Shown here: positions 4,726 to 37,541 of the stretch, in pieces | Layout: each line of letters starts with the position of its first letter | Numbering within the stretch: the first letter of the stretch is position 1 | From: Lepiota brunneoincarnata | Taxonomy: Eukaryota > Basidiomycota > Agaricomycetes > Agaricales > Agaricaceae | Assembly: GCA_023014365.1 (NCBI GenBank) | Contig: JAEBUN010000007.1 | Coordinates: forward strand, 248,001 to 312,000 | Direction: 5' to 3' | DNA length: 64,000 bases | Translations under genes and position numbers: made by a program | Notes under the pieces: model-generated | Databases searched by the model: none | Seen by the model: only the letters and a program-made list of their open reading frames with translations | What the model was told of the DNA's origin: nothing

Positions 4726-6951
4726 AGAAGACCTTTAACTCAGACGTGATGTCATTGCAAGATACCACAACCACCCTACATGTGGCCACCCCAGAGAACA
4801 GGAAACATACCACCTCGCCAAGAAAGAAGTTTATTGGCCAGGAATGTCGACGTTCATAAAGAACTACATCAAAGGCTGTCCCAAGTGTCAGCAACACAAA
4901 ATCATATGCAGACTGGATCGAGCACCGACTCAACCAATTCCTCCACCATCCTCCAAACACCCATTTGCCCAGATCTCATGGGTCCTTATCACCGGTCTAC
5001 CACCTAGTGCTGGCCATAATGCAATATTGTCCGTGGTGGACCATGGCCTTACGAAGGGGGTAATTTTCATCCCAACATCAGATCGATCAAATGCTGATGA
5101 CATCGGACGACTATTAATAGAAAAAGTCTTCACCAGATTCAGATTACCTGATAAAATCATATCAGATCGAGACCCCAGATTCACCGCCAACTCCCTCCAA
5201 CAACTAGCCAAATGTCTAAACATCCAACAGGCATTCTCAACTGCATACCATCCCCAGACAGATGGTTCCACCAAACGATACAATCAGGAAATCAAGACCT
5301 ACCTTGCCATATACTGCACCAGAAACCCTCTTGATTGGTCAGAAACCCTCCCTATTGCCAAGTTTGCACACAACTCCAAAATACATGCCTCAAGGCAGAA
5401 ATCCCCATTTGAACTAATCATGGGATACAACCCTCCGCCGATACCCATGGTAATGGAAACATCGAACTTTCCATCAGTAGACGAATGCATCAGACTCCCT
5501 GATGATGCCAGAAAAGAAGCACACATGGCACATCAACTCTCCACCAATATTATGAAACAAAGAACCAGAAGAACTGTCAAACCCCTTGAAACACATCAAA
5601 AAGTATGGCTAGAAGCCAAAAACCTCAAACTCCCCTTCATTTCCAACAAAATATCCCCAAAATGACTAGGTGTCATATCCATGCCAACTCAGAGTCTAAT
5701 CACTTAAACTTCGGCTTCTCGATTCCACGTGTGCTCCACACAACAACCCTCTGCCCTCCGACTCGGCCCCGACTTGCTCCGACCGCAACCCACTGCCCCG
5801 ATTACGCGACCACCTCCACACGTGCCGTGGTCACCTGACCCTTGGTGTCTCTAGTTCCAGTCTCCATTTCCTGTCCGTAGTCAAGATACGTTATCGGTCT
5901 CCATACCTGTACCGGTTTCCATTCCATTCGTAATCTGTTCGTAATCCGTTGTAACTATATCGGCCTCCGCTTCGCTCCACACGTAATCAGTACGAGTCAT
6001 AGTTCGTAAGGCCAGTAGTATATATACTGTAGGTACTTGGCTTGTACTCCTCAGTCTGATAATCGAATCGAGCAGCGGACCAGCTCCCTGTTCCCTATCC
6101 TCTCCTCTCTTCTGCCTCGCTCTGCTTCGGCTCCGACTTCCTGAAATATGGACTAGGACAGTAGGAGGGCACAGCACATACGCTGAGGCCGCAAGTCCAA
6201 CCCCCCGCCTGACGTACTCCACCTCAGTCCCAAAGTCTACGTACTGACTTTGCCCTGTCCCCCGGTTACCTTATATCAAGGTTACCACCCTGACCCTCCA
6301 CCTCGGTCCTGACCCGCACTGGCTCTAACACTAGGACCTTTCCTTATCTCAGAAGTCTTATCGCCACTCACCTACAAACTAAAACTTCCGATCAAATGGA
6401 AAATACACCCAGTATTCCACAGAAACCTTCTAACCCCATATACCAAAACAGAAGCATACGGATCTCATCCAACTCCACCACCACCAAACATCATCAATGA
6501 AGAAGAAGAATACGAAATAGAAGCCATTCTAAATCACCGCCAACACTGTGGAAAACTCCAATATTATGTCAAATGGAAAGGATACTCCCACATGGAGAAC
6601 GAATGGATCACCGATGAAACACTCCACGCAAACGCTGAAGAATACTTAACCGAGTATAAAGAAGCTTATGGAATTCTCCAGAAAGAACAGAAACCCACCA
6701 GAACTGACCAAAGACAACTTTGCTCCCACACCAAACGTACTAAAGATGCCCATGAACCTCGATCTCACTCACCCCCAAACCACTCCCCCCTTCTCAACAA
6801 CACCCTCGCCAATGTCCTCATCATCCTCAATCATCATCATCAACAATGCAAGCATCGAACATACTACACTTCAGACAACTCCCATTCCAGCCCCGTCTCC
6901 CTACACCCTCTCTCACACCTTCGCCGCAACATACGCCTCCCCCAGGGATGA
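4726..6951 (+). pseudogene. Gypsy pol, family E1 copy B (5' truncated, split by solo LTR)
   Basis: Starts abruptly at the position equivalent to 1867 of copy A, just before the HHCC zinc finger. It runs through the integrase core to a TGA at 5663 (CGA in copies A and C). The frame resumes in register after the solo LTR 5671-6330 plus one 5-bp duplication, giving the chromodomain (YEIEAILNH, YYVKWKGYS at about 6510-6600). The pol stop seen in copy C is lost here by a one-base difference, so the frame runs to 6951. Many differences from copy A are CG to TG/CA. Non-functional. Confidence 0.9.
5671..6330 (+). repeat. Solo LTR of family E2
   Basis: 660 bp from TGTCATATCC to GGCTCTAACA, flanked by the 5-bp target duplication CTAGG (5666-5670 and 6331-6335). 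Same length and sequence type as the two LTRs of the complete E2 element at 29,670-37,536. No internal region remains, so it arose by LTR-LTR recombination. It contains the TATATATA box and the AGTCTGATAAT start-site motif. Confidence 0.93.
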
Positions 6952-8534: not shown

Positions 8535-9418
8535 ATACCCTTGGGAGGAGATTCATACTCTCCCAACTTTCTCTTCACATATTCCCATAAGTGTTCAATG
8601 GGATTGAGGTCAGGTGACTGTGCTGGCCAGGTTAGGAGCCTAAAATGATTTTTTTGAAACCATTCTTTGGCCAGTGTACTCTTGTGTTTGGGGTCATTAT
8701 CTTGCTAGAAAATAATATCTCGGGGTTTAAGCTTGTACCACCGGAGACTCTTCTTCAAATCTTCCTCCAAAATTTGCACAAACAACTCTGCATCCATCCT
8801 TCCATCAATCCTCACTGCATAGCCTGGGCCATCCCACAGCATACAGCCCCAAACCATCACTGATCCTCCTCCATACTTCAGAGTTCCCTTGACCAATCTT
8901 TCACTAAGCCCCTCTCCCTTCTTTTTCCATCCCCACTCCCTCCCATCTGACCCCAAACAATTAATTTTGGTCTCATCAGACCATACAACCAGCTTCCAGT
9001 CCTCCACAGTCCAATGCTGGTGTGTCAGAGCAAAATCCAGCCTAGCCCTCCTATGCTTGTCAGAGAGTAAAGGCTTTTGTTGCTTGACTACAGCCTTCAT
9101 TCCTGCCTGTTTGAGATGCCTTGCTACAGTCTGTGAAGAGACTGATGTCCCAATGATGGGAGCAAGAGATTTGGCTATATCTACAGCAGTTTCAGCCTTG
9201 CCAGCAGAGATAAGATGGATAGTATGCCGAATATTAGTGGTAGAGAGTTTTGAAGGACATCCTCCAAGTGATTTAGTAAGGCTGGAACAATTTTTAGAGG
9301 CTAGCCTGGATATGGTACTGCACCCAACACCAGTAATTGCCTCAATTTTAGTATAGGAATGATGAGAATTTAGCAAAGAGAGGATGGTTTGCTTTAGAGT
9401 AGAAGATAATGGCTTCAT
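8535..9418 (-). pseudogene. Tc1/mariner transposase T1 (DD34E), C-terminus cut by LTR B
   Basis: Reads from ATG at 9418 leftward. N-terminal helix-turn-helix (about residues 15-40), catalytic block WSDETK, an in-frame TAG at 8705, then QDNDPKH and NPIEHLW. The second D and the E are 34 residues apart, the Tc1 DD34E signature. The TAG sits where related transposases have Gln (CAG to TAG). The last residues run straight into LTR B, so the C-terminus and left terminal repeat are missing. A cut-and-paste transposase by family; dead here. Confidence 0.92.
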
Positions 9419-9489
9419 GGTAGGTAGGGGGATTGAGAATGATGGGACATGGCTGTCAGCACATCTATTTATATGTCAAAGACACGTGG

Positions 9490-11645: not shown

Positions 11646-14266
11646 CTAGATGGTTTGAGATAGAGATGCAACAACTACCACCTGCTGGTCATCCCACTGC
11701 AAATGACAGCATGCAAATTGTGATACAACCCTATCCATGTCAACAATCTCTAATTCCCCAAGCTGTGTACTATAAAGACTAGATCTAAGCACTGGATACC
11801 TCCGGAATGGGTCATCAGTGACAGGTGGAGGAAGGTGGCTTTGGACTGCAAGATAGTGCTTGGTGTCTAGTCTGAATATATACATAATTCAGGCTGGGTA
11901 GAGTGAGGTCACCAAGGGGCCACAGTAAAATAAAACTTGCAAGTTCCCCTCATGTTTTGCCATTACTGAATAGTGGATACCTAGAGCTGTGTAAGAAGAT
12001 TGAAAATGTGCCTTCTCTGGAGGTTGAGTTGCAAAGGTCCTTTGGTAAGCAGCATCCAGCTCATGAGGGAAGGTAAGAAATTGCCAGACAGATGTGTCAT
12101 CATCATTGGAATCAGGGTTGGAGGTAAATGGGGAGGCCAGCATATCAGTGATTAGCATGTCTCAAACTTGTGGTTCAATGAATTTGTTGAAGATTGCCTT
12201 GCAATTCTGCAAAGCAGGTGACTCTGATTTATGGATGACAGCACAAAGATTAGCCATCCGAGTATAGGAGCGACTGGTGGTCTCCTCATATTCACCTGGA
12301 AACAATATATTGAGGAGGAGAAGAAAAAAAGCTGCTAGTTGCTCACCAGGTTTTGTATTGTTTGGAATCCACTGAAGAATACCAATCAGCCATTCAAAAG
12401 GAAAGGCCCACCAGCCATGGACTGGTCCATATTGTAGTAGAAACTCATGAAGGTGGAGAGCTATGTGATGTTTGGGTTGGAATTTGTAGCCAGGGAAGAG
12501 TTGGTTGATAGTTGAAACATATGCCTTTATATGATGGAAGTATTGAACTGCATGTGATGCTGAAGTGACACATGAAATTGCAATAATTACAGCTGAGACA
12601 AGATCCACAGTTGCTTGTAAAATCTCATGACAGTGCAGAGATTGGGAGTTGCCATCCTCTATCTTGCTCCAAAGTCAAATCAAAGTGATAACCAAATACA
12701 GCATCCCAAGCATCCGCCACTGGTCAGCCTTCACTTTGCCATGTCTCCCTGATCCAATGTCTCCAGGGACTGATGTCACCCAGGAAGGTGTCGACATCTG
12801 CGCAATATTGGACCAGATCTCCTTATGCTCAAGTTCTGTAAGAATAGCACCATGATGTGCCCAGTCATCTTCAGATTCTGGCAGTATTGGCTGTGCCATG
12901 CGCTATACATGCTATATCTTAGTATTGCATATAGATGAAGAAAATGGCACATTACCCATTCCAGAAGAAACTCCACAAGTTGCATCCTTGTAGCCTGCTC
13001 ATGGTATGCAATCTGGAGTTGGTCGCACACAAATTTGAGTGCTTCCTTGGAACATGCTGCCCATTTCTGGCGTGCACTGTCATCATTTTCAATGTGATTC
13101 TTGAGGTAGTTCCTTAAGCAAGTCACGGATTGTTGCTCTTGAGGCTGGAGGTGCATACATTCACTAAACAGGGGGATAGTGCAAACAAATCCATCTTCAC
13201 CTGCATGTTTACCAAGACAAATACCGAGAATGCCATCGAAGTGCTCTGCAAGCAGGCCCAAGAACAAGTTGTGCATGGGATCAACAACCAACATTTGAGA
13301 AACATCAAAATAGGGGAGGTGAAAGAGTTCAGATGATCGAATGCCAACCTGGCTGACTATAGCACCTTGCCTATCCCAATTGGGAGCAGCTAAGAACTGC
13401 GCAGCCCACTGGCAGGACTCTTCATTTGTATGACATTGCCAGGACATATAATTCACGTTCCCATAAGCATGAGCCTGTTGAGTGCAGTAGCAGATGGTGC
13501 ACATGAAGGTATGGGTAGGTGATGCAAATCCCACTATCTTCCAAGCTGCCACAAGGTCACAAATTATTGTCACAAGTGTGCAACAGATGTGGCGACCATG
13601 GGGATGACCATGCATCTGAGTAAAGAATACACTGGGCTCCCAGAGTTCAAGGAGATCATTGACAGGGGGTTTAAGGTAATGATTACCTGCAGTCAATGGC
13701 AGCTCACTTGGGCCAGGGATAATACCAGCTAGAAACATGTTCTCGGGTTTGTAGCACTGGTCAAGAGGGAGATTGAGGCACACCAGGGAGATTATGCCAT
13801 TGGATATTCTCTTCCCTGCTTGCTTGTTGCCAAGGGGGTTGAAGAAGTCAATGCACAAGCCAAACACGTACTGGCCCTCATGCCTAGCAGAACCAAAATG
13901 TTTTCCATTGGGACTGGAGAATGTGTGAAGAGTAGAACCATCGAATATGTCATGCATCTCCTGAGGGCTATTGCAGCGCATCTGCTCCCACACACCATCC
14001 ATCATTGTTTCAAATCCAGGGTGAGAGAGAAGGCTGGCAAGCCAATCTTTGAAGTGGAAGTACATGAAGGGCTTGACAGGTATCTGTATCTCCTTTCCTT
14101 GAATGAGTTTTGAGGTAGTGAGGGTGACCCCACACTCCTCTCCACTTGGGAACTCCTTGTGGTCGCATTGAGTTGGGTACTTGACAGGAGTATCCGAGCC
14201 GCATGTGTACATGGGGGGATATATTATATGGCAGTTGGGGTCAGGACAGACCACGTATGTTGTCAA
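11646..14266 (-). pseudogene. Plavaka/Tnp2-type DNA transposase, multiply frameshifted
   Basis: Starts at 14,266 and reads leftward. Cys-containing N-terminus (VVCPDPNC, then CDHKEFPSGEECG), then a core with VVDPMHNLFLGLL (about 13,290), the hallmark I associate with basidiomycete Plavaka/Tnp2 transposases. After shifts of frame it continues with PSWVTSVP and ADQWRMLGMLYLVITLI (about 12,680-12,800), NHHIALHL-like KHHIALHLHEF and GWWAFPFEWLIGILQ (about 12,350-12,480), and the C-terminal tail at 12,158-11,646. At least three frame changes and stops separate the pieces, some of which could be introns. A cut-and-paste enzyme by family, non-functional here. Assignment is by motif recall only. Confidence 0.8.
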
Positions 14267-14499
14267 CTTGCCTTCAAGGTGTAGGTGGTTTATGATGGAG
14301 CGACTGTCTCATGGGAAATCTGATAAAGGTTTTCTCTCAGGTGGGCTAATATTTGAGCCAGCATGTATGAGTGACAACTGGATTGCATAATAATTCATCC
14401 CAAGCAGAAAGTCTGCACCACACCTAGGGAGTCCAAGAATTGCCTGGCAGGTGGCAATTGAGAATAAGTTGATCTGGAGGACGGGATCAGTACCTGGCA

Positions 14500-16248: not shown

Positions 16249-16908
16249 TGTCATATCCATGCCAACTCAGAGTCTAATCACTTAAACTTCGGCTTCTCGA
16301 TTCCACGTGTGCTCCACACAACAACCCTCTGCCCTCCGACTCGGCCCCGACTTGCTCCAACCGCAACCCACTGCCCCGATCACGCGACCACCTCCACACG
16401 TGCCGTGGTCACCTGACCCTCGGTGTCTCTAGTTCCAGTCTCCATTTCCCGTCCGTAGTCATGATACGTTATCGGTCTCCATACCTGTACCGGTTTCCAT
16501 TCCATTCGTAATCTGTTCGTAATCCGTTGTAACTATATCGGCCTCCGCTTCGCTCCGCACATAATCAGTACGAGTCATAGTTCGTAAGGCCAGTAGTATA
16601 TATACTGTAGGTACTTGGCTTGTACTCCTCAGTCTGATAATCGATTCGAGCAGCGGACCAGCTCCCTGTTCTCTATCCTCTCCTCTCTTCTGCCTCGCTC
16701 CGCTTCAGCCCCGACTTCCTGAAATACGGACTAGGACAGTAGGAGGGCACAGCACATACGCTGAGGCCGCAAGTCCAACCCCCTGCCCGACGTACTCCGC
16801 CTCGGTCCCGAAGTCTACATACTGACTTCGCCCTGTCCCCCGGTTACCTTATATCAAGGTTACCACCCCGACCCTCCGCCTCGGTCCCGACCCGCACCGG
16901 CTCTAACA
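16249..16908 (+). repeat. Solo LTR of family E2 (second)
   Basis: 660 bp TGTCATATCC...CTCTAACA with target duplication CAAAC at 16,244-16,248 and 16,909-16,913. Same family as 5671-6330 and the two LTRs of element E2. Confidence 0.93.
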
Positions 16909-26958: not shown

Positions 26959-29669
26959 TTAAGTACATTTGGTGTGGGAGCAAAGTTGTCTTTGGTTGGT
27001 TCTGGTGGGTTCCTGTTCTTTCTGGAGAATTCCATGAGCTTCTTTATACTTGGTTAAGTATTCTTCGGCGTTTGTGTGGAGTGTTTCATTGGTGATCCAT
27101 TTGTTCTCCATGTGGGGATATCCTTTCCATTTGACATAGTATTGGAGTTTTCCGTGGTGTTGGTGGTGATTTAGAATGGCTTCTATTTCGTATTCTTCTT
27201 CTTCATTGATGATGTCTGGTGGTGGTGGAGTTGGATGAGATCCGTATGCTTCTGTTTTGGTATATGGGGTTAGAAGGTTTCTGTGGAATACTGGGTGTAT
27301 CTTCCATTTGATCGGAAGTTTTAGTTTGTAGGTGAGTGGGGATAAGACTTCTGAGATAAGGAAAGGTCCTAGTCGTTTTGGGGATATTTTGTTGGAAATG
27401 AAGGGCAGTTTGAGGTTCCTGGCTTCTAGCCATACTTTTTGACGTGTTTCAAGGGGTTTGACAGTTCTTCTGGTTCTTTGTTTCATAATATCGGCGGAGA
27501 GTTGATGTGCCATGTGTGCTTCTTTTCTGGCATCATCAAGGAGTCTGATGCATTCGTCTACTGATGGAAAGTTCGATGTTTCCATTACCGTGGGTATCGG
27601 TGGAGGGTTGTATCCCATGATTAGTTCAAATGGGGATTTCTGCCTTGATGCATGTATTTTGGAATTGTGTGCAAACTTGGCAATAGGGAGGGTTTCTGAC
27701 CAGTCAAGAGGGTTTCTGGTGCAGTATATGGCGAGGTAGGTTTCGATTTCCTGATTGTATTGTTCAGTGGAACCATCTGTCTGGGGATGGTATGCAGTTG
27801 AGAATGCCTGTTGGATGTTTAAACGTTTGGCTAGTTGTCGGAGAGAGTTGGCGGCAAATCTGGGGTCTCAATCTGATATGATTTTATCAGGTAATCTGAA
27901 TCTGGTGAAGACTTTTTCTATTAATAGTCGTCTGATGTTGTCGGCGTTTGATTGATCTGAGGTTGGGATGAAAATTACCCCCTTCGTAAGGCCGTGGTCC
28001 ACCATGGACAATATCGCATTATGGCCAGCACTAGGCGGTAGACCAGTGATAAGATCCCATGAGATCTGTGCAAATGGGCGTTTGGAAGATGATGGTGGGA
28101 TCGGTTGAGTTGGTGCGCGATCTGGTCTGCATATGATCTTGTGTTGCTGACACTCTGGACAGCCTTTGATGTAGTTCTTTATGAATGTTGACATTCCTGG
28201 CCAATATACTTCTTTCTTGGTGAGGCGGTATGTTTCCTGTTCTCCAGGATGGCCACGTGTAGGGTGGTTGTGGTATCTTGCGATGACATCGCATCTGAGT
28301 TGGAGGTCTTCTGGAATAATGACACGTTCTTGGAATGTGAGGAGTGGACCATTTGAGGTCGGAACTGTTCCAAAGTCTTTATCGGCGGCGTTAGGATGGG
28401 TTTCTTTTAGGAGTTTGAACGCTTCAGTGGTTCTAGCGTCATATTTGGGTGATTCCGTGATTCTTTCTTGGAGTTCCATATCGACGGTGGTGATAAAGAG
28501 GTGTTCTGGGAGTACTGTGATCAGGTTTTGATCTTCTATGTCAGCGGTGGTGACAAAGAGGTTGTTTGGAAGCATGGTGACGTCTTCATTATCATTATCC
28601 TCATCAGGGATGTGGTCTGGACATCTTGATAGGGTGTCTGGTGCAGGGATCTTTGATCCTGGGACGTGTTCTAATTTGAAGTTGTAGTCAGCGAGGGTCT
28701 GGACCCATCGTGCTTGTCTGCAGTTGATTTTCTGGGGTTTGCGCCAGTATGTTAGGTTTTGGTGGTCTGTTCTGATGCAGACAGTGTGAGGGCTGCCAAG
28801 GAGGTAGTGGCGCCATTCTTTGAGGGCTCAGATAATAGCGAGGAGTTCCCTGTCGTAGATATCGTAGTTGCGTTCTGCTGGTCCGAACGTCTTTGAATAG
28901 AATGATACGGGTTTCTGTATTCCGTTGATGTCATGTTGATACAGGACAGCTCCTGATGCAAACTTGGAAGCATCGGCTTCTATTTCGAAGGGTTTTGTGG
29001 AGTCGGGCATGAGGAGTACCAGTTCCTTTAGGAATTCATTCTTGAGCGTTTCAAACGCTTTCTGTTGTTCTTCTTTCCATTTGAATTTGTTTGATTTGGA
29101 AAGGAGTTGGTTCAGGGGTTTAGTGTGGTGGGAGTAACTGCAGATGAACTTCCGGTAGAAGTTACAGAATCCAATGAATTTCCAAATGTGTCGGACTGTT
29201 TTTGGTACTGGCCAGTCTTCTATTCCCTTGAGTTTTCCGGGATCCATTTTGATCTCGTCTGGCATGATAATCATGCCTAGATATTCGAGTCGTTGTTTGT
29301 TGAACTTGCATTTCTCTGTTTTGAGGTAAAGGTCATTTTCCTGCAGGATTTGCAGTACTTTTTCCGTAAGTTGGTCAGTTTCTTCCTGGGTTTTACCGTA
29401 GATTAGGATATCATCCATGTAGATGATGATTCCTCCTTTCTCCATTATTTCAGAGAACAATGTGTCCATCATATGTTGGAATGTCGCGGGACTGTTGCAG
29501 AGTCCGAAAAACATAACAGTCGGTTCGAAAAGACCCATGGGAGTCTTGAACGCTGCTTTCCATTGATCGCCATCTTTGATTCTGATGTTATTGTATCCTA
29601 GGCGGATGTCGAGCTTAGTGAAATACTTAGCTCCTTTGAGTTTGTCCATGATAGAGGAAATCATGGGGA
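26959..29669 (-). pseudogene. Gypsy pol of E1 copy C, RT to chromodomain
   Basis: RT from MISSIMDKL (29,664) with YMDDILIYGK, RNase H, HHCC finger, integrase core and chromodomain (YEIEAIL, YYVKWKGYP), ending at TAA near 26,959. Interrupted by stops near 28,828 and 27,868. The N-terminal part of the same pol lies at 37,542-38,660, separated by the nested E2 element. Confidence 0.92.
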
Positions 29670-30329
29670 TGTCATATCCATGCCAACTCAGAGTCTAATC
29701 ATTTAAACTTCAGCTTCTCAACTCCACGTGTGTTCCACACAACAACCCTCTGCCCTCTGACTCGGCCCCGACCTGCTCCGACCGCAACCCACTGCCCCAA
29801 TCATGCGACCACCTCCACACGTGCCGTGGTCACCTGACCCTTGGTGTCTCATACCCCTGTCTCCATTTCCCGTCCATAGTCAAGATACGTTATTAGTCTC
29901 CATACCTGTACCCGTTTCCATTCCATTTGTAATCCGTTTGTAATCCGTTTGTAACTAGATCGGTCTCCGCTTTGCTCCGCACGTAGTCAGTACGAGTCAT
30001 AGTTCGTAAGGCCAGTAGTATATATACTGTAGGTACTTGGCTTGTACTCCTCAGTCTGATAATCGAATCGAGCAGCGGACCAGCTCCCTGTTCCCTATCC
30101 TCTCCTCTCTTCTGCCTCGCTCCGCTTCGGCTCCGACTTCCTGAAATATGGACAAGGACAGTAGGAGGGCACAGCACATAAGCTGAGGCCGCAAGTCCAA
30201 CCCCCCGCCCGACGTACTCCACCTCGGTCCTGAAGTCTACGTACTGACTTCGCCCTGTCCCCGGTTACCTTATACCAAGGATACCACCCCAACCCTCCGC
30301 TTCGGTCCCAACCCGCACTGGCTCTAACA
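29670..30329 (+). repeat. 5' LTR of E2
   Basis: TGTCATATCC...CTCTAACA, 660 bp. TATA box TATATATA at 30,019-30,026. AGTCTGATAAT at 30,053-30,063 is 34 nt downstream, at the expected transcript 5' end. Confidence 0.93.
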
Positions 30330-30331
30330 GT

Positions 30332-30342
30332 ATTATCAGACT
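30332..30342 (+). promoter_or_regulatory. Self-complementary primer-binding site of E2
   Basis: ATTATCAGACT, two bases after the 5' LTR, is the exact reverse complement of AGTCTGATAAT in the LTR (30,053-30,063). Such pairing defines the Tf1/sushi self-priming class, where the RNA 5' end primes reverse transcription instead of a tRNA. Confidence 0.75.
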
Positions 30343-30384
30343 CACACTCCTCCTGTCCATCACATTTTCTGATCCCTTCTAACC

Positions 30385-31764
30385 ATGGTCTCTCGAACAG
30401 TCACCCGTACCCGCACTCTCGTGTCCCCGGCTGTTTGCCATAGTAGACATGTCGCTCGACAACCCCTTTCCGAAGAACTGCAACCCGACTCCCCGAGGGC
30501 TCCTTGCTCTCGTCTACAATCGGTCACACCATCGACTCCCGACCGCTTCTCTGAAGATATCCAACCTTCGTTATTTCAGACTCCCGATGGTCCCGACGAG
30601 GGCCCCGACCCCAATCCTGATCCCAGTGACCCTGGTGATCCCGACGACAATCCTGATCCCAGTGACCCTGGTGATCCCGACGACAATCCTGACAACGGGG
30701 ACGGGCCCCCGGGCGATGACAAACCATCAGACAACAGCGACAACAACAACATCCCACCTGGCAACACCCGAGATGACCATGATAGACTCATACTCCGAGT
30801 TTTCCAACGCATAGCCGATCAAATGGACAGCCGTGGGAACTCTCAAGCCCCACAGCCTCCTCGATCTCCCTGTACCAAAGCTCGCAAACCTGACATCTTT
30901 ACAGGTTCCGACCCCGCCAAACTCAAACCCTTCCTCTTCCAATGTCAGCTCTATTTCCGTACTAACCCGGCCCAGTTCGCTATCCCCGCCACCAAGGTCA
31001 ACTTCACGTTGACATACCTCACAGGCATGGCACAGCAACACTTCAAAATCGGCCTCGACGAGGCCGACAACCATGGAATAATACACGACTGGATCGAGGA
31101 CTGGGACTAGTTCACCCTGGAACTGCAGACCAATTTCGGTCCTGCAGATCCAACCGGAGAAGCTGCTGAGCAGCTCGACTCCCTCCGAATGCGCTACGAC
31201 GAGAAGATTGCTGTCTACAACATCAACTTTCTCTGCCTAGCTGGCCAACTCCGCTGGGGTGACGAAGTATTTTGTCACCGCTACTACAAGGGCCTCCCCG
31301 ACTGCATCCAGGACATTCTGTCCAATCAGCCCGATGGCAAGCCCGACACCTTCATCGAAATGCGAGCAGCAGCGATGAAGATCGACGCTCGCTACTGGGA
31401 GCGCCAACGCGAGAAGGCCCACGCCAAAGCCGCTTCGGACCCAACCACCTCTAGGAAACCTGGAGGTAACCCATCCCCTTCCACCTCGACTAACCCGCAA
31501 CCTGCTGCCAAGCCTGCCAATAATAACAGAGGCAGCACCCCCAACAACAACTTCAAGGGCAATCCGCCCAATCCACCTGCCGGTCAGAAATCAGCCCCAC
31601 CCAAATCCGACCTTACTAGTAAACTTGGTAAGGACGGTAAATTAACCCCCGAGGAACATCAACGATGTTTCGACAATAACCTCTGCCTTGTCTGCACAGA
31701 TCCCAATCACAGGGCTGCCAACTGCGACAAGAAGAAATTCCCTGATGCCAAGGCTAAAGGCTGA
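30385..31764 (+). pseudogene. E2 gag
   Basis: Single frame from ATG 30,385. Disordered acidic N-terminus with two tandem 36-nt repeats (30,613-30,684, DPSDPGDPDDNP). Capsid-like domain about residues 165-360, Pro/Asn-rich linker, and zinc knuckle CLVCTDPNHRAANC (about 31,681-31,722; CX2CX4HX4C). An in-frame TAG at 31,108 interrupts. The frame ends at TGA 31,762; pol continues in the -1 frame. Structural nucleocapsid protein by family. Confidence 0.9.
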
Positions 31765-31799
31765 CAGGCTCAGCTTCCCGAGACAGACGCGCCGACTCT

Positions 31800-34700
31800 C
31801 CCGAGCTCGGAAAAATAGTCGGCGGTCCTCAGGCCTCTGCACAGACTGAGGATCGCATTGAACTCTGCTGTGCCCCAGAGAGTTTCCGTCTCAATGCGTC
31901 CACTCTTTCCAACCCAAACTCTTTTCATATTACATTAACTTCTCCTGTAGTTACTTCTTTATCTTCTGTTTCCGCTTCCGTACTCTCCGCTTCGGACCCG
32001 ATTTCTACAACGGACAATGTAGTTAGTTCTGATTTCTCTTCTCTTTCTCCTTTCAAAGCTCTTGTTGATAGTGGTTCTACTCACTGTTTTGTGGACTCAT
32101 CTTTTGTTCGTTCTCATAGTATTCCAACCTCGTCCATCCCAGCTATTGAACTTCAGTTATTTGACGGGACCTCAAATGCCTACATTACGGAGCTTGCGCA
32201 ACTGCCTGTATCTTTCCCCTCCGGTGAATCTATTATCTTGGACACTTATGTCACCTGGCTCGACTCTTCCTGTTCTGTGGTCTTAGGACATAACTGGCTC
32301 ACCCGCTACAATCCGTTGATTGACTGGACTTTGGGCAGTATCACTTTCCGGCCATCCCTACTCGAGAATCCTGCTTCCGTCCCTACCTGCGTCGCACCCG
32401 CATCGGCCCCGCCTATGGCCACCCCTGACACTCCTGACCTAGGTTCACCACCCCTGTCTGGGACCTCGTCCCAATCTGTCCCCCTTGTGAAACCGCACAT
32501 ATCCCTGATAAACGCTCCTGCCTTTATCTGCGCTGTCAAGCTCCCTGGCTCCCAACAATTCCGAATCAATCTCTCCGCCGCCTCCACATTGGCCGCATCC
32601 TCTTCTGTCTCCAAAGACCCGGCTGACCTCTCGTCCATCCCCGAGGAATACCATGAGTTTGCTGATGTTTTCAGTAAATCGCGTGCTGACACACTCGCTC
32701 CACACCGCCCTTATGACCTCCAGATTAACCTAGAGGATGGCAGTCAACCTCCGGTCGGTACCATTTATTCCCTTTCACAATCAGAGCTTGGAGCTCTACG
32801 TGATTTTATTAACGAACATTTGTCCATTGGTTTCATTCACCCTTCCACTTCTCCTCATGGAGCCCCGGTCCTCTTCGTCAAGAAAAAGGACGGCTCCCTC
32901 CGCTTATGTGTTGATTTTAGAGGTCTCAACCATATTACCAAGAAGGACCGCTACCCCCTTCCGCTCATCTCCGACCTCTTAGACTCCCCTCGCAAAGCCC
33001 GTGTATATACCAAAATCGACCTCTGTCACGCCTACCATCTTGTCCACGTTGCTGACGGCGACGAATGGAAGACCGCCTTTCAGACCCACTACGGCTCCTT
33101 CGAATGGATGGTTATGCCTTTCGGCCTCACCAACGCCCCTGCCACTTTCCAGCGGTTCATGAACAATATATTCAAGAACATGCTCGACGTCTGCGTTACC
33201 ATCTATCTTGACGACATCCTGATATACTCCAACAATCATAGTATCCATCGTGACCAAGTCAAGGAGGTCCTTAAGCGGCTCCGACAACACGGCCTATATG
33301 CCTGCCCCAACAAATGCCAGTTCCACTCTGACACAGTGGAATATCTCGGCTACATTCTTTCCCCTGATGGTCTCCAAATGGACCAATCTAAGGTCAAGAC
33401 CATCCAGGAGTGGCCGGAACCCAAGAAAGTCAAGGACATCCAGTCCTTCTTAGGTTTCGCCAATTTTTACCGTCGCTTCATTCACGGTTACTCCGACATT
33501 GTCGTTCCACTCACTCGCCTCACCTGCAAAGACGTGAAATGGAATTTCACCAACGAATGCCGCGAAGCCTTCAGTTCCTTGAAAGAAGCATTCATATCTG
33601 CCCCTGTCCTCACTCCTTGGGCCCCCAACGCTCAGATCATTGTTGAGACCGACGCCTCCGACTATGCCCTTGTGGCTATCCTCTCTATCATCACCGATGA
33701 CGGTGAGGTTCACCCTGTTGCATTCCATTCCTGCACCTTTAACACGGCCAAACTTAATTATGACACCCATGACAAGGAACTCCTGGCGATATTCGAGGCT
33801 TTTCGTATCTGGCGGCACTATCTTGAGGGTGCCCCTCTCACTATTGATGTAGTCACCGACCACAAAAACCTCGAATACTTCTGCACCACCAAGATCCTTA
33901 CTCGCCGCCAAGCTCGTTGGTCCGAGTTCCTATCCCAATTCCACCTCATCATCCGGTTCCAACCCGGCTGCCTCGGCACCAAGCCTGATGCCCTAACTAG
34001 ACAATGGGACGTCTACCCTAAAGGGGGGAATAGCGACTATGCATCAGTCAACCCGCACAACTTCCGGCCTGTGTTCACTCATGAACAGCTTGCGGCCTCC
34101 GTCCATGCCACCACTCTTTACGCCCCTTCCCTTCGCGCAGCTGTAGTCATGGATCTCAACCAACTACACCGCGATATCCTCGCCGCTCTACCAGCGGATC
34201 CAATCGCCTCCGCCCATCTTGCCAGCCCAGAAGGCCATTGGTCAGTTAACGATAAAGGTTTCCTCCTCCTAGACGACAGAATCTACGTCCCTGACACCGA
34301 CAATCTCCGACTTTGGGTCCTCCAGTACAAGCATGACCATGTCCTAGCTGGCCACTTCAGTCAGAATAAAACGCTGGAACTCATCCGGCGCGAATACACC
34401 TGGCCTAGTGTCCACACCTTTGTCAAAGATTTCTGTAAGTCTTGTGTCACCTCTCTGAGGTCTAAACCCCAGCGCCACCACCCCTATGGTCTCCTCAAGC
34501 AACTCCCCATCCCTGAACACCCTTGGAATTCAATCTCCATGGACTTCATCGAGAAACTCCCCGCCTCCTCCGGCTACGATGCCATCCTAGTAATAGTCGA
34601 CAGACTCACCAAGCAATCCTTATTCATCCCCACCTACGATACCGTCACCTCCTCCGACCTCGCCCGCCTATTCGTCCTCCACGTCTTCTCCAAGCATGGT

Positions 34701-35618
34701 GTACCCAAACATGTTACCTCCGACCGTGGCTCCAAATTTGTCTCTCACTTCTTCCGCTCATTGGGACAAGCCCTCAACATGAAACTACACTTCACTTCGG
34801 GCTACCACCCAGAAGGCGACGGACAGACAGAACGCACCAACCAGACCCTGGAACAATATCTCCAGGTCTATTGTAACTACCAACAGGACAATTGGTCCGA
34901 ATTACTACCGCTAGCTGAGTTTGCTTACAACAATGCCCCTAGTGCCACCACTGGTATCTCCCCGTTCTTCGCTAATAAAGGATACCATCCGAACATCACG
35001 GTTCATCCTGAACGCGATCTCACCTCCGCTTGGGCCCACTATTTTGCGGTTGATCTCGACAACCTACATACCACCTTGAAGTTGGAAATAGCGTTAGCCC
35101 AGCAACAATACCAGACCTCCGCCGATGCCTGCCATCTCCCAGCTCCGGACTTCAAGGTTGGGCAAAAAGTGTTCGTTAAAGCCCAGTTCTTCCGCACCAC
35201 CCGTCCCTCCAAAAAGCTCTCCGAAAAGTTCCTTGGACCCTATGAGATCATCGCCCAAGCAGGTACCCACTCCTTCACCCTCCGACTTCCTGACTCCATG
35301 CATGGAGTACACCCAGTTTTCCATGTTTCTATGCTCGAACCGGCCACGCCTAACACCATACCCGCCTGATCGGAACCGCCACCTGCGCCAGTTTCTATCG
35401 ATGGCGAACCAGAATACGAAATCGCTCGCATTGTCGACTCAAAGATCGACCAGCGCTGCGCATGCAAACTCCTCTACAAAGTCATTTGGTTAGGTTATGA
35501 AGACACCGAAGAAGAGTCTTCGTGGTTACCGGCTACTGAGCTTGAACATGCCATAGATTTAGTAGAGGCTTTCCATTCCTCTTACCCTGCTAAGCCTGGC
35601 CCCCTCCATTCACTCTGA
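31800..35618 (+). pseudogene. E2 pol (protease-RT-RNase H-integrase-chromodomain)
   Basis: Frame is -1 relative to gag and open well upstream of the protease motif LVDSGSTH (32,061-32,084). RT has YLDDILIYS near 33,205, then RNase H, then the zinc finger (GHFSQNKTLELI, CKSC) and integrase core (SMDFIEKLP, SDRGSKF, YHPEGDGQTER). TGA at 35,367 separates integrase from an in-frame chromodomain (YEIARIVDSK, LYKVIWLGYE) ending at 35,618. Apart from this stop the 1,092-codon stretch 32,091-35,369 is intact. Confidence 0.93.
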
Positions 35619-35677
35619 ATTTTCCGCTGACCACCCACCACACCAAGAAACAAAAAAAAATTATTGGACAAGTACAA

Positions 35678-36745
35678 CTACCTGTCCATATCGTTCCCAG
35701 AGGTGCGGGGTGGCGCCGCTGCATCCTCCATCATACCTCGCACCTCCTCTTCCGAAACACCTCCGATGCTCTCCGACTCCTCCGACTCCTCCGTCTCCTC
35801 CGTCTCCGTAATACCCCTACTCGACCAGTTACCATCCACCTGCACCTCCCAACGCCGCAACTGTTCATAGCGGCCAGCCGTCAGCTCGACCTTGTCCACC
35901 CTCTCCCCCAATCAAGTGATGGCCTGTGCAAGCCGCACCTCCATGATATTGACCCGCTTGAGGGTCTTCTGGTGCCCCTCCTCGATAAGTCGCTTCAGCT
36001 CTACAGGATCATTTGGTCAGCAAACCTCGCAGTCAGAAACTCCTCACTCACCTTCAAATTGTTGGCCTGACATCCCCCCGGCCCCGCTTGGCTCCGTCTC
36101 CTCTTGACCCCCGCACCATTTTTTCATTTTGCTGCACCAACGGCAACTCCTGGTGTTACTAAAAAAACTATCAGTATGTAGCCTGGAAACCCTCAAAATG
36201 ACTTACCCGCCAGCGACCTCACACAGGACCTCGTCTCACTGGCACCTCCAGCAGGGGTTCTCGCCCCCGAATACGTTCACATGGCCCTGTCGTGGGGCCG
36301 CCCTTGCCTTTGCCTTCCCCTTGCCCTTATCCCCTGAATCCCCGGAGGCCTCCTCCTCCTCCTCCTCCTCATCTCTCGCCTCATCCCTATCCATGTATTC
36401 GGAATCTGACTCCTCCGTATCTACCTGCATCGGTTCTTCCGACGGATGGCTTGACGAGGCCCCCGTAGTCGTTGTGATGAGTTGGGCCCGAATCGCCCGA
36501 CGCTCTGCCTCGGCAGCCTCATCTTGTTGCCGCCTGATATCTTCCGCCATACGCTCTCTCGCCCGCTCCTCCGCTTGTCGCTGGCGCAGCGCTATCATCC
36601 GCTGCCGCTCCTCCTCCTCTCGTTGCTCCTCCTCCTCCAGCCTCTCAATTTCCAGCCACTCTCGCTCCTCTTGCTCCGCCTTCTCCCTCAACAATTGCGC
36701 CATGCGCTCCGCAGCGGTCGGTTGTCGGGAGGGTTGTCTGCTCAT
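35678..36745 (-). pseudogene. Antisense three-exon gene in E2: Glu/Arg coiled coil plus Zn(II)2Cys6-like cluster
   Basis: Opposite strand to gag-pol, between pol and the 3' LTR. Exons 36,745-36,207, 36,149-36,052 and 36,000-35,678; introns of 57 nt (GTAAGT...CAG) and 51 nt (GTGAGT...TAG) join in phase to 320 codons including stop. Residues about 10-90 are a Glu/Arg/Gln-rich coiled coil, then an acidic stretch, then GKGKAKA. Splicing unites CWRC, LC, CRWC and KKWC into CX2CX6CX6CX2CX6C, the fungal binuclear zinc cluster spacing. A second helical and Glu/Ser-rich part follows. Two TGAs (36,236 and 35,912) interrupt, both explicable as CGA to TGA. A DNA-binding role is inferred only from cysteine spacing. 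Confidence 0.7.
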
Positions 36746-36876
36746 GGGAGTAAGAGGTCAAGTTGTGTTTTTTGGAATCAAACCAGTTCACCGTTTTTAT
36801 ACCCTGCTGGAACTTTCCGATGGGCCCCAGCCTAGACCGCCTTGGGCCTCAAGGCTCGGCCCTAAAGGGGGGGCAC

Positions 36877-37536
36877 TGTCATATCCATGCCAACTCAGAG
36901 TCTAATCATTTAAACTTCGGCTTCTTGACTCCACGTGTGTTCCACACAACAACCCTCTGCCCTCCGACTCGGCCCCGACCTGCTCCGACTGCAACCCACT
37001 GCCCTGATCACATGACCACCTCCACACGTGCCGTGGTCACCTGACCTTTGGTGTCTCATACCCCCGTCTCCATTTCCTGTCCGTAGTCAAGATACGTTAT
37101 TAGTCTCCATACCTGTACCCGTTTCCATTCCATTCGTAATCCGTTTGTAATCCGTTTGTAACTAGATCGGTCTCCGCTTTGCTCCGCACGTAGTCAGTAC
37201 GAGTCATAGTTCATAAGGCCAGTAGTATATATACTGTAGGTACTTGGCTTGTACTCCTCAGTCTGATAATCGAATCGAGCAGCGGACCAGCTCCCTGTTC
37301 CCTATCCTCTCCTCTCTTCTGCCTCGCTCCGCTTCGGCTCCGACTTCCTGAAATACAGACAAGGACAGTAGGAGGGCACAGCACATAAGCTGAGGCCGCA
37401 AGTCCAACCCCCCGCCCAACGTACTCCGCCTCGGTCCCGAAGTCTACATACTGACTTCGCCCTGTCCCCGGTTACCTTATACCAAGGATACCACCCTGAC
37501 CCTCCGCTTTGGTCCCGACCCGCACCAGCTCTAACA
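36877..37536 (+). repeat. 3' LTR of E2
   Basis: 660 bp, preceded by AAAGGGGGGGCAC (polypurine tract), followed by the GGGGA target duplication. Confidence 0.93.
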
Positions 37537-37541
37537 GGGGA

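What the first reader, a model, noticed from the sequence alone, without database searches (positions are those of the whole stretch)
35678..36745. Antisense, intron-containing zinc-cluster gene inside a Ty3/Gypsy element (E2)
Between pol and the 3' LTR, on the opposite strand, two consensus-like introns (57 and 51 nt) join three exons in phase to 320 codons. Splicing creates CX2CX6CX6CX2CX6C, the spacing of fungal Zn(II)2Cys6 DNA-binding domains, next to a long Glu/Arg coiled coil. The cluster exists only if the first intron is removed and one TGA is read as an ancestral CGA. An element-borne spliced gene cannot pass through the sense RNA as a spliced copy, so antisense orientation would preserve its introns during retrotransposition. 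It may be an element-encoded regulator.
Basis: partly seen in the sequence, partly recalled or inferred. Interest (0 to 1): 0.9.

Follow-up and report, generated by a model that had tools for sequence, protein, structure and literature searches.

The report
Retrotransposon's own antisense zinc-cluster gene
A fungal retrotransposon family carries, on the strand opposite its own genes, a gene that selection has kept in frame and whose predicted spliced product would be a zinc-cluster DNA-binding protein, and the paired CGG sites it would likely bind are repeated in the element's own ends, so it probably lets the element control itself.

Summary
Window 36745-35678 (minus) carries three exons and two GT-AG introns between chromovirus pol and the 3' LTR. 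The window copy is dead, but 205 exon-1 matches lie in the same genome. Of 40 near copies, 39 keep both GT-AG introns; exon indels are mostly multiples of three, non-coding indels mostly not. dN/dS in the spliced antisense frame is 0.24 in deep pairs and the lowest of six frames. Six cysteines (CX2CX6CX6CX2CX6C) are near-invariant. New here: an antisense TATA box in 42 of 46 copies; everted CCG-N3-CGG pairs in the LTRs (3.1 per LTR, about 24-fold over the genome, first or second of 1024 dyads in five LTRs scanned); CGG-N6-CCG just upstream of the antisense TATA (strict in 30 of 46); and a four-copy lineage with an internally deleted antisense gene beside long open pol frames. Paired CGG triplets are what fungal zinc-cluster dimers typically bind. 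I read it as an element-encoded zinc-cluster-like regulator; expression, splicing and binding are untested, and the LTR sites show no clear extra conservation. Antisense accessory genes are known in plants and Botrytis Boty; the zinc cluster, introns and LTR sites make this a new variant. Formal Zn2Cys6 membership is borderline.

The parts
29665..37541 (+). Ty3/Gypsy chromovirus copy E2 with 5-bp target duplication GGGGA, nested in another Gypsy element
   Evidence: LTR ends and flanking GGGGA on both sides; neighbouring Gypsy ORFs on the minus strand on both sides
29670..30329 (+). 5' LTR, 660 bp; CCG-N3-CGG at 30122 and 30297
   Evidence: 28 of 660 mismatches to the 3' LTR, all transitions
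30373..31764 (+). gag, broken by an in-frame stop in this copy
   Evidence: ORFs; weak Retrotrans_gag match, below cut-off,
31758..35369 (+). pol: protease, RT, RNase H, integrase, SH3_Tf2-1; stop at the end of this ORF in this copy
   Evidence: Pfam
35370..35615 (+). chromodomain stretch after the pol stop
   Evidence: Pfam Chromo 32.6 bits over cut-off 25.1
36207..36745 (-). antisense exon 1: charged helix, acidic stretch, basic stretch, first cysteine triad
   Evidence: helix residues 11-95 with high pLDDT in a single-sequence model
36150..36206 (-). antisense intron 1, 57 nt, GTAAGT...CCAG
   Evidence: branch-like CTRAY in 40 of 40 copies
36052..36149 (-). antisense exon 2: second cysteine triad, 98 nt
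36001..36051 (-). antisense intron 2, 51 nt, GTGAGT...GTAG
   Evidence: CTRAY in 35 of 40 copies
35678..36000 (-). antisense exon 3: predicted coiled coil, acidic tail and stop
36795..36801 (-). antisense TATAAAA, 56 nt before the ATG
   Evidence: in 42 of 46 copies at -56 to -60
36808..36819 (-). CGG-N6-CCG pair upstream of the antisense TATA, one base off in this copy
   Evidence: strict in 30 of 46 copies, degenerate in 8, absent in 4, no TATA in 4
36877..37536 (+). 3' LTR; CCG-N3-CGG at 36964, 37329 and 37426

Best explanation
The sequence is an antisense gene of a Ty3/Gypsy chromovirus family that selection has held in frame across copies; it is predicted to be spliced twice from its own TATA promoter, and its product would likely be a nuclear zinc-cluster dimer that binds paired CGG triplets in the element's LTRs and antisense promoter and so sets the element's own transcription. 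Shown by sequence: position, exon and intron structure, near-invariant cysteines, purifying selection, the antisense TATA box, enriched CCG-N3-CGG in the LTRs, CGG-N6-CCG at the antisense promoter, and deletion derivatives with long open pol frames. Inferred: transcription, splicing, nuclear entry (from a basic stretch), dimerisation (from exon 3 heptads), binding to these sites, and whether it activates or represses. Inferred too: because the introns lie on the antisense strand, the sense RNA that is reverse-transcribed would keep them. The derivatives suggest that the protein acts in trans or can be done without in cis.
For: Splice sites kept in 39 of 40 copies; 43 of 47 premature stops are TGA (copies whose spliced length is a multiple of three), fitting CpG decay after insertion. 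dN/dS rises from 0.24 in deep pairs (343 of 630 pairs) to 0.64 in the closest (22 pairs), as expected for a gene selected while mobile and neutral once dead; antisense frame lowest of six. Five of six cysteine columns invariant, the sixth 0.97, in 36 in-frame copies. In 8 of 8 divergent copies pol lies opposite at 92-94% identity and an LTR upstream; 118 of 148 listed pol places have a listed exon 1 on the opposite strand. Antisense TATA in 42 of 46. CCG-N3-CGG: 3.10 per LTR in 42 LTRs against 0.198 per kb genome-wide; rank 1 of 1024 dyads in 4 of 5 LTRs chosen, rank 2 in the fifth; none in the stretches around the repeats flanking the neighbouring Gypsy. CGG-N6-CCG at the antisense TATA strict in 30 of 46. 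The only three PDB matches, weak, are zinc-cluster factors. Such factors typically bind CGG pairs as dimers through a following coiled coil (PMC5559640, passages); the exon 3 helix shows heptad order at p 0.003-0.007 in three copies tested.
Against: No RNA, protein or binding data. The full protein scores 15.1 bits on Zn_clus, under the cut-off of 21.0; the isolated region of one copy scores 21.5, of two others 14.3 and 18.5; the second triad alone matches nothing. Pfam's best stretch matches the first triad to the second half of its profile, and the basic residues lie in the second triad. The LTR site search was made after the protein was known. A first conservation test on four of the six recurring LTR sites looked strong (1 transversion in 1008 triplet cells), but with all six sites it vanishes: 13 in 1506 against 44 in 3602 at other CpG columns, p 0.31. 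Two copies with open antisense frames have few strict LTR sites (L032 none, L015 one; the other eight have four to six), and 6 of 42 LTRs have none. A second dyad, CGG-N2-CCG, is also enriched, 2.40 per LTR, so the LTR may simply hold CpG-rich words. Intron 1 has fewer substitutions (0.050) than the exons (0.09-0.13), while intron 2 has more (0.209). Deletion derivatives show that the gene is not strictly needed in cis.
Confidence: 0.5

Rival explanations
1. The protein is a real nuclear DNA-binding accessory protein, but it serves integration or nuclear entry of the pre-integration complex rather than transcription; the CGG pairs in the LTR would then be coincidental or mark the ends.
For: Roles of this kind are proposed for plant antisense ORFs (PMC7264820). 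The gene has a basic stretch and a zinc cluster. LTR sites show no clear extra conservation.
Against: A derivative without most of the gene reached four copies with long open pol frames. The CGG-N6-CCG pair sits at the antisense promoter, which fits transcription better.
Confidence: 0.2
2. The main product is the antisense RNA, which pairs with the sense transcript and silences the element; the protein matters little.
For: Antisense RNA roles are discussed for plant elements and retroviruses (PMC7264820; PMC10186651 passages). The TATA box is conserved.
Against: An RNA-only role does not predict dN/dS of 0.2-0.3 in one frame, in-frame exon indels, or invariant cysteines.
Confidence: 0.08
3. 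It is a captured host zinc-cluster gene in decay, carried as cargo without benefit to the element.
For: Introns and a zinc cluster are host-gene features; the window copy is dead; a lineage lost the gene and multiplied.
Against: Purifying selection across families. Of 32 listed exon-1 places without a listed pol I opened four, and all had pol nearby, three on the opposite strand and one (L053) on the same strand. The 25 genome places of a Zn_clus search do not coincide with the listed exon-1 places; ancestry was not tested.
Confidence: 0.08
4. The open frame is a shadow of a sense-strand ORF or of GC-rich composition.
For: A 265-codon sense frame overlaps exon 1 (36108-36905), and over exon 1 in 37 copies sense frame 1 has fewer stops (29) than the antisense frame (45).
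Against: dN/dS is lower in the antisense frame (0.20 against 0.31 in exon 1, ten open copies; 0.26 against 0.43 in all 36). In exons 1 and 3 every sense frame has stops in the ten copies; in exon 2 two sense frames have none but give dN/dS above 1. The ten were chosen for being open in antisense. Splice sites and cysteines are conserved.
Confidence: 0.03

Closest known systems
[quoted passage not shown]
   Same: Same place and orientation, present in most copies; gene23 is nuclear with its own promoter; TRP28 is predicted to bind DNA (PMC7264820 parts 1 and 2 of 3 read; PMC11963269 passages).
   Different: No zinc cluster is mentioned in what I saw, and the word intron does not occur in the Retand paper's main text. 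Different host kingdom. Homology not tested.
Boty brtn in Botrytis cinerea (Zhao 2011)
   Same: An antisense additional gene in a fungal Gypsy element with a chromodomain (PMC8365987 and PMC4227169 passages).
   Different: The brtn paper is not held, so its domains and any introns are unknown to me; no sequence comparison was made.
HTLV-1 HBZ
   Same: Antisense, spliced, nuclear transcription-factor-like accessory gene of an LTR element (PMC10186651 passages).
   Different: bZIP, not zinc cluster; promoter in the 3' LTR; retrovirus. Works alike at most; no relation claimed.
Fungal Zn2Cys6 factors (Ppr1, Pho7, Gal4)
   Same: Six-cysteine spacing followed by linker and heptad helix; CGG-pair sites nearby.
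   Different: Basic residues in the second triad; Pfam score borderline; Pfam finds no other domain.

Membership tests
Ty3/Gypsy chromovirus | Protease-RT-RNase H-integrase order, chromodomain, LTRs with target duplication | tested here: met
Antisense accessory ORF between pol and 3' LTR | Opposite strand, between pol and the 3' LTR, in most copies | tested here: met
   118 of 148 listed pol places have a listed exon 1 opposite (both lists capped); 8 of 8 divergent copies
Antisense accessory ORF between pol and 3' LTR | Homology to a described one (gene23, TRP28, brtn) | not tested
   brtn paper not held; none of their sequences fetched; the Pfam scan of the spliced protein lists only Zn_clus
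Fungal Zn2Cys6 cluster | CX2CX6CX5-12CX2CX6-9C (range recalled) | tested here: met
   36 of 40 near copies; near-invariant cysteines
Fungal Zn2Cys6 cluster | Pfam PF00172 above its cut-off of 21.0 | tested here: inconclusive
   Isolated region 21.5, 14.3 and 18.5 bits in three copies; full protein 15.1
Fungal Zn2Cys6 cluster | Basic residues between the second and third cysteine (recalled) | tested here: not met
   The basic run lies in the second triad; the first triad aligns to the profile's second half. Hence filed as 'works like', not as a member
Fungal Zn2Cys6 cluster | Coiled-coil dimerisation helix after a linker | tested here: met
   Heptad periodicity of a 41-residue exon 3 stretch p 0.003-0.007 in 3 copies tested; by sequence only
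Fungal Zn2Cys6 cluster | Binds CGG triplets | not testable with these tools
   Candidate sites only

The most novel reading that the evidence does not exclude
An LTR retrotransposon family encodes its own intron-bearing zinc-cluster transcription factor on the antisense strand, with cognate CGG-pair operators both in its LTRs and at the factor's own promoter: a self-contained autoregulatory circuit whose product would also serve derivatives that have deleted the gene.
Probability: 0.38. Interest if true: 0.88.

Novelty: new variant of a known kind. Interest (0 to 1): 0.73.

Why it matters
Antisense accessory genes of LTR retrotransposons are described in plants and in a fungal family, but their function is not known (PMC7264820). 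Here the protein type, a candidate binding grammar and candidate sites occur together in one element, so the question becomes a simple binding and reporter test. It would also be an intron-bearing gene kept through retrotransposition by lying antisense, with gene-less derivatives of a regulator-bearing element as natural controls.

Tried and rejected
Homologues elsewhere: the spliced protein of one copy and a six-row exon 1 alignment gave no hit among the 7996 and 7982 candidates scored. This is weak evidence, since Glu/Arg-rich words probably filled the candidate lists; a pol query (residues 300-800) does find named Agaricales proteins, so the database holds such fungi. Viral contigs: no pol match, and no exon 1 relative among 600 pattern matches. 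Other species could not be tested.

LTR site conservation: first taken as support (four sites), withdrawn after a recount with all six recurring sites; confidence was lowered from 0.55 to 0.5 and the novel case from 0.42 to 0.38 for this.

Shadow ORF rejected by six-frame dN/dS. First helix as a coiled coil not supported: heptad p 0.23-0.27. The LTR pair 5671-6330 and 16249-16908, first taken for a second element, is two solo LTRs.

Rows dropped: the 40 places were aligned closely, plus 8 of the further exon-1 places. L030, L031 and L035 were left out of codon and indel work, and out-of-frame copies out (36 kept of 48). L047 carried a 3' overrun there and was not counted open, although one search shows it open. 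The splice script required a 98-nt exon 2 and modelled 6 of 8 divergent copies (not L043, L048). LTRs were cut from 42 of 48 copies; 5 of 42 were used for the dyad scan. The E1 control stretches were taken around the repeat, not cut at exact ends.

Papers: ten searches (listings with abstract starts) showed no paper that I recognised as describing a zinc-cluster antisense gene in a fungal LTR retrotransposon; the library lacks most subscription papers. PMC10799480 was searched by terms only and showed nothing on the point.

Full report
WHAT IS THERE. The element E2 spans 29665-37541 with 660-bp LTRs at 29670-30329 and 36877-37536 and a GGGGA target duplication; the LTRs differ at 28 of 660 sites, all transitions. 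It sits inside another Gypsy element on the minus strand. Its pol has protease, RT, RNase H, integrase and SH3_Tf2-1, followed by a chromodomain stretch. Gag, pol and the antisense gene of this copy are all interrupted. Among named proteins the nearest to pol residues 300-800 are from Leucocoprinus birnbaumii (81%) and Agaricus bisporus (75-76%), so the host is probably one of the Agaricales.

THE GENE. On the minus strand the exons are 36745-36207, 36149-36052 and 36000-35678. A DNA search gave 41 matches at 40 places in the same genome. A protein search with exon 1 gave 205 matches, the 150 listed being 61-100% identical. In the 40 aligned copies both introns are GT-AG in 39, and a branch-like CTRAY is found in 40 (intron 1) and 35 (intron 2) of 40. 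Exon 2 is 98 nt in 39 of 40 copies and 99 nt in one, while introns vary from 56 to 65 and from 48 to 51 nt. Distinct indels are multiples of three in 16 of 26 exon events (exon 1 10 of 13, exon 2 0 of 1, exon 3 6 of 12) and in 4 of 34 events in introns and near flanks, or 10 of 55 with events outside those segments. Seven of 40 copies and L041, L042 and L045 of the eight more divergent ones have an uninterrupted spliced frame as they stand; L047 does too.

SELECTION. In 36 in-frame copies dN/dS is 0.24 in pairs with dS above 0.25 (343 of 630 pairs), 0.34 (210), 0.44 (55) and 0.64 in the closest (22). The zinc region gives 0.17 in the deep pairs. In ten open copies the antisense frame gives 0.20, 0.21 and 0.34 for exons 1-3, the lowest of six frames each time; the next is sense frame 1 with 0.31, 0.30 and 0.52, which also has stops. 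Because those ten were chosen open, the test on all 36 matters: 0.26 against 0.43 in exon 1 and 0.33 against 0.53 in exon 3. Openness alone would not decide the strand: over exon 1 in 37 copies sense frame 1 has 29 stops and the antisense frame 45. Of 47 premature stops in the spliced frame 43 are TGA (copies whose spliced length is a multiple of three).

CONTEXT. All eight more divergent copies fetched have the gene facing pol (92-94% identical amino acids) with an LTR (85-93%) upstream. The antisense protein is 51-91% identical in the aligned pieces, some of which run through introns, so it differs more than pol. Of 148 listed pol places, 118 have a listed exon 1 on the opposite strand 0.5-2.8 kb away; one same-strand neighbour pair was seen; both lists are capped. 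Of the 30 pol places without, I opened four: three had internal deletions of the antisense gene, one held the gene in pieces. Of 32 exon-1 places without a listed pol I opened four: all had pol nearby, three on the opposite strand and one (L053) on the same strand. One deletion is shared by four copies, beside pol frames listed as open for 1286, 1286, 1286 and 1181 residues. Two of the four were opened: both keep the antisense TATA, start and tail, one of them with a further stop in the tail, and both keep six LTR CCG-N3-CGG sites. A lineage without most of the protein has therefore multiplied. Either the protein acts in trans or it is dispensable.

PROMOTER. TATAAAA stands 56-60 nt before the antisense ATG in 42 of 46 copies. 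Just upstream lies CGG-N6-CCG, strict in 30 of 46, degenerate in 8, absent in 4, with no TATA in 4. AATAAA or AATAAT follows the stop in 22 of the 23 copies, of 48 searched, in which the stop context was found.

LTR SITES. CCG-N3-CGG occurs 3.10 times per LTR in 42 LTRs; 6 of the 42 have none and 12 have five or six. The genome has 10,997 such places in 55.6 Mb, 0.198 per kb, against about 4.7 per kb in the LTR; spacing N4 has 8,188 genome-wide and 0.00 per LTR. Of 7 sites in the window outside E2, 5 lie in the two solo LTRs of the same family. Among 1024 triplet dyads it ranks first in L033, L040, L045 and L041 and second in L002. The sites fall at six recurring places (8 to 27 strict of 42) with five different spacers. 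Conservation is a mixed result. On the four places that align without gaps, triplet cells have 1 transversion in 1008; with all six places it is 13 in 1506, against 44 in 3602 at other CpG columns (p 0.31) and 235 in 25421 elsewhere (p 1.0). I therefore claim enrichment, not extra conservation. Among the ten copies with open antisense frames eight have four to six sites, L015 one and L032 none. The stretches around the repeats that flank the neighbouring Gypsy have none.

PROTEIN. The order is charged helix (11-95, pLDDT 96-98 in the blocks from residue 11 to 90, single-sequence model of the window's exon 1), acidic stretch, basic stretch, six-cysteine cluster, short linker, heptad helix, acidic tail. 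Zn_clus is the only Pfam match, borderline. The only three PDB matches are Ppr1, Pho7 and an entry named C27B12.11c that aligns as Pho7 does, E 0.15-0.64. The first triad resembles the second half of the profile and the basic residues sit in the second triad, so the cluster may be arranged the other way round. Factors of this kind typically bind paired CGG triplets as dimers through a following coiled coil (PMC5559640).

VERDICT. A real, selected antisense gene with predicted introns: about 0.95. A CGG-binding regulator of its own element: about 0.45-0.5. Antisense accessory genes are known from plants and Boty, so this is a new variant of a known kind.

Noticed in passing
window 5671-6330 and 16249-16908: Two solo LTRs of the same family, with target duplications CTAGG and CAAAC.
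   Followed up: partly
L032, L033, L041, L045, L046: Exon 1 types and exon 3 types occur in several combinations, suggesting template switching between families.
   Followed up: partly
L049, L050; G000:C25:79751, C52:12354, C52:28970, C69:468703: Four copies share one in-frame deletion of most of the antisense gene beside long open pol frames; L052 has a different deletion.
   Followed up: partly
40 near copies, introns: Intron 1 has fewer substitutions than the exons (0.050 against 0.09-0.13) yet many indels, while intron 2 has more (0.209); unexplained.
   Followed up: no
LTRs of the family: A second dyad, CGG-N2-CCG, is also enriched, 2.40 per LTR.
   Followed up: no
L041-L048: The antisense protein diverges far more between families than pol does.
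   Followed up: partly
window 12776-14308 and 8705-9475, minus: A tnp2-type transposase ORF and a Tc3-like transposase ORF.
   Followed up: no
window 30604-30692: Short internal direct repeat in gag, period about 36 nt.
   Followed up: no
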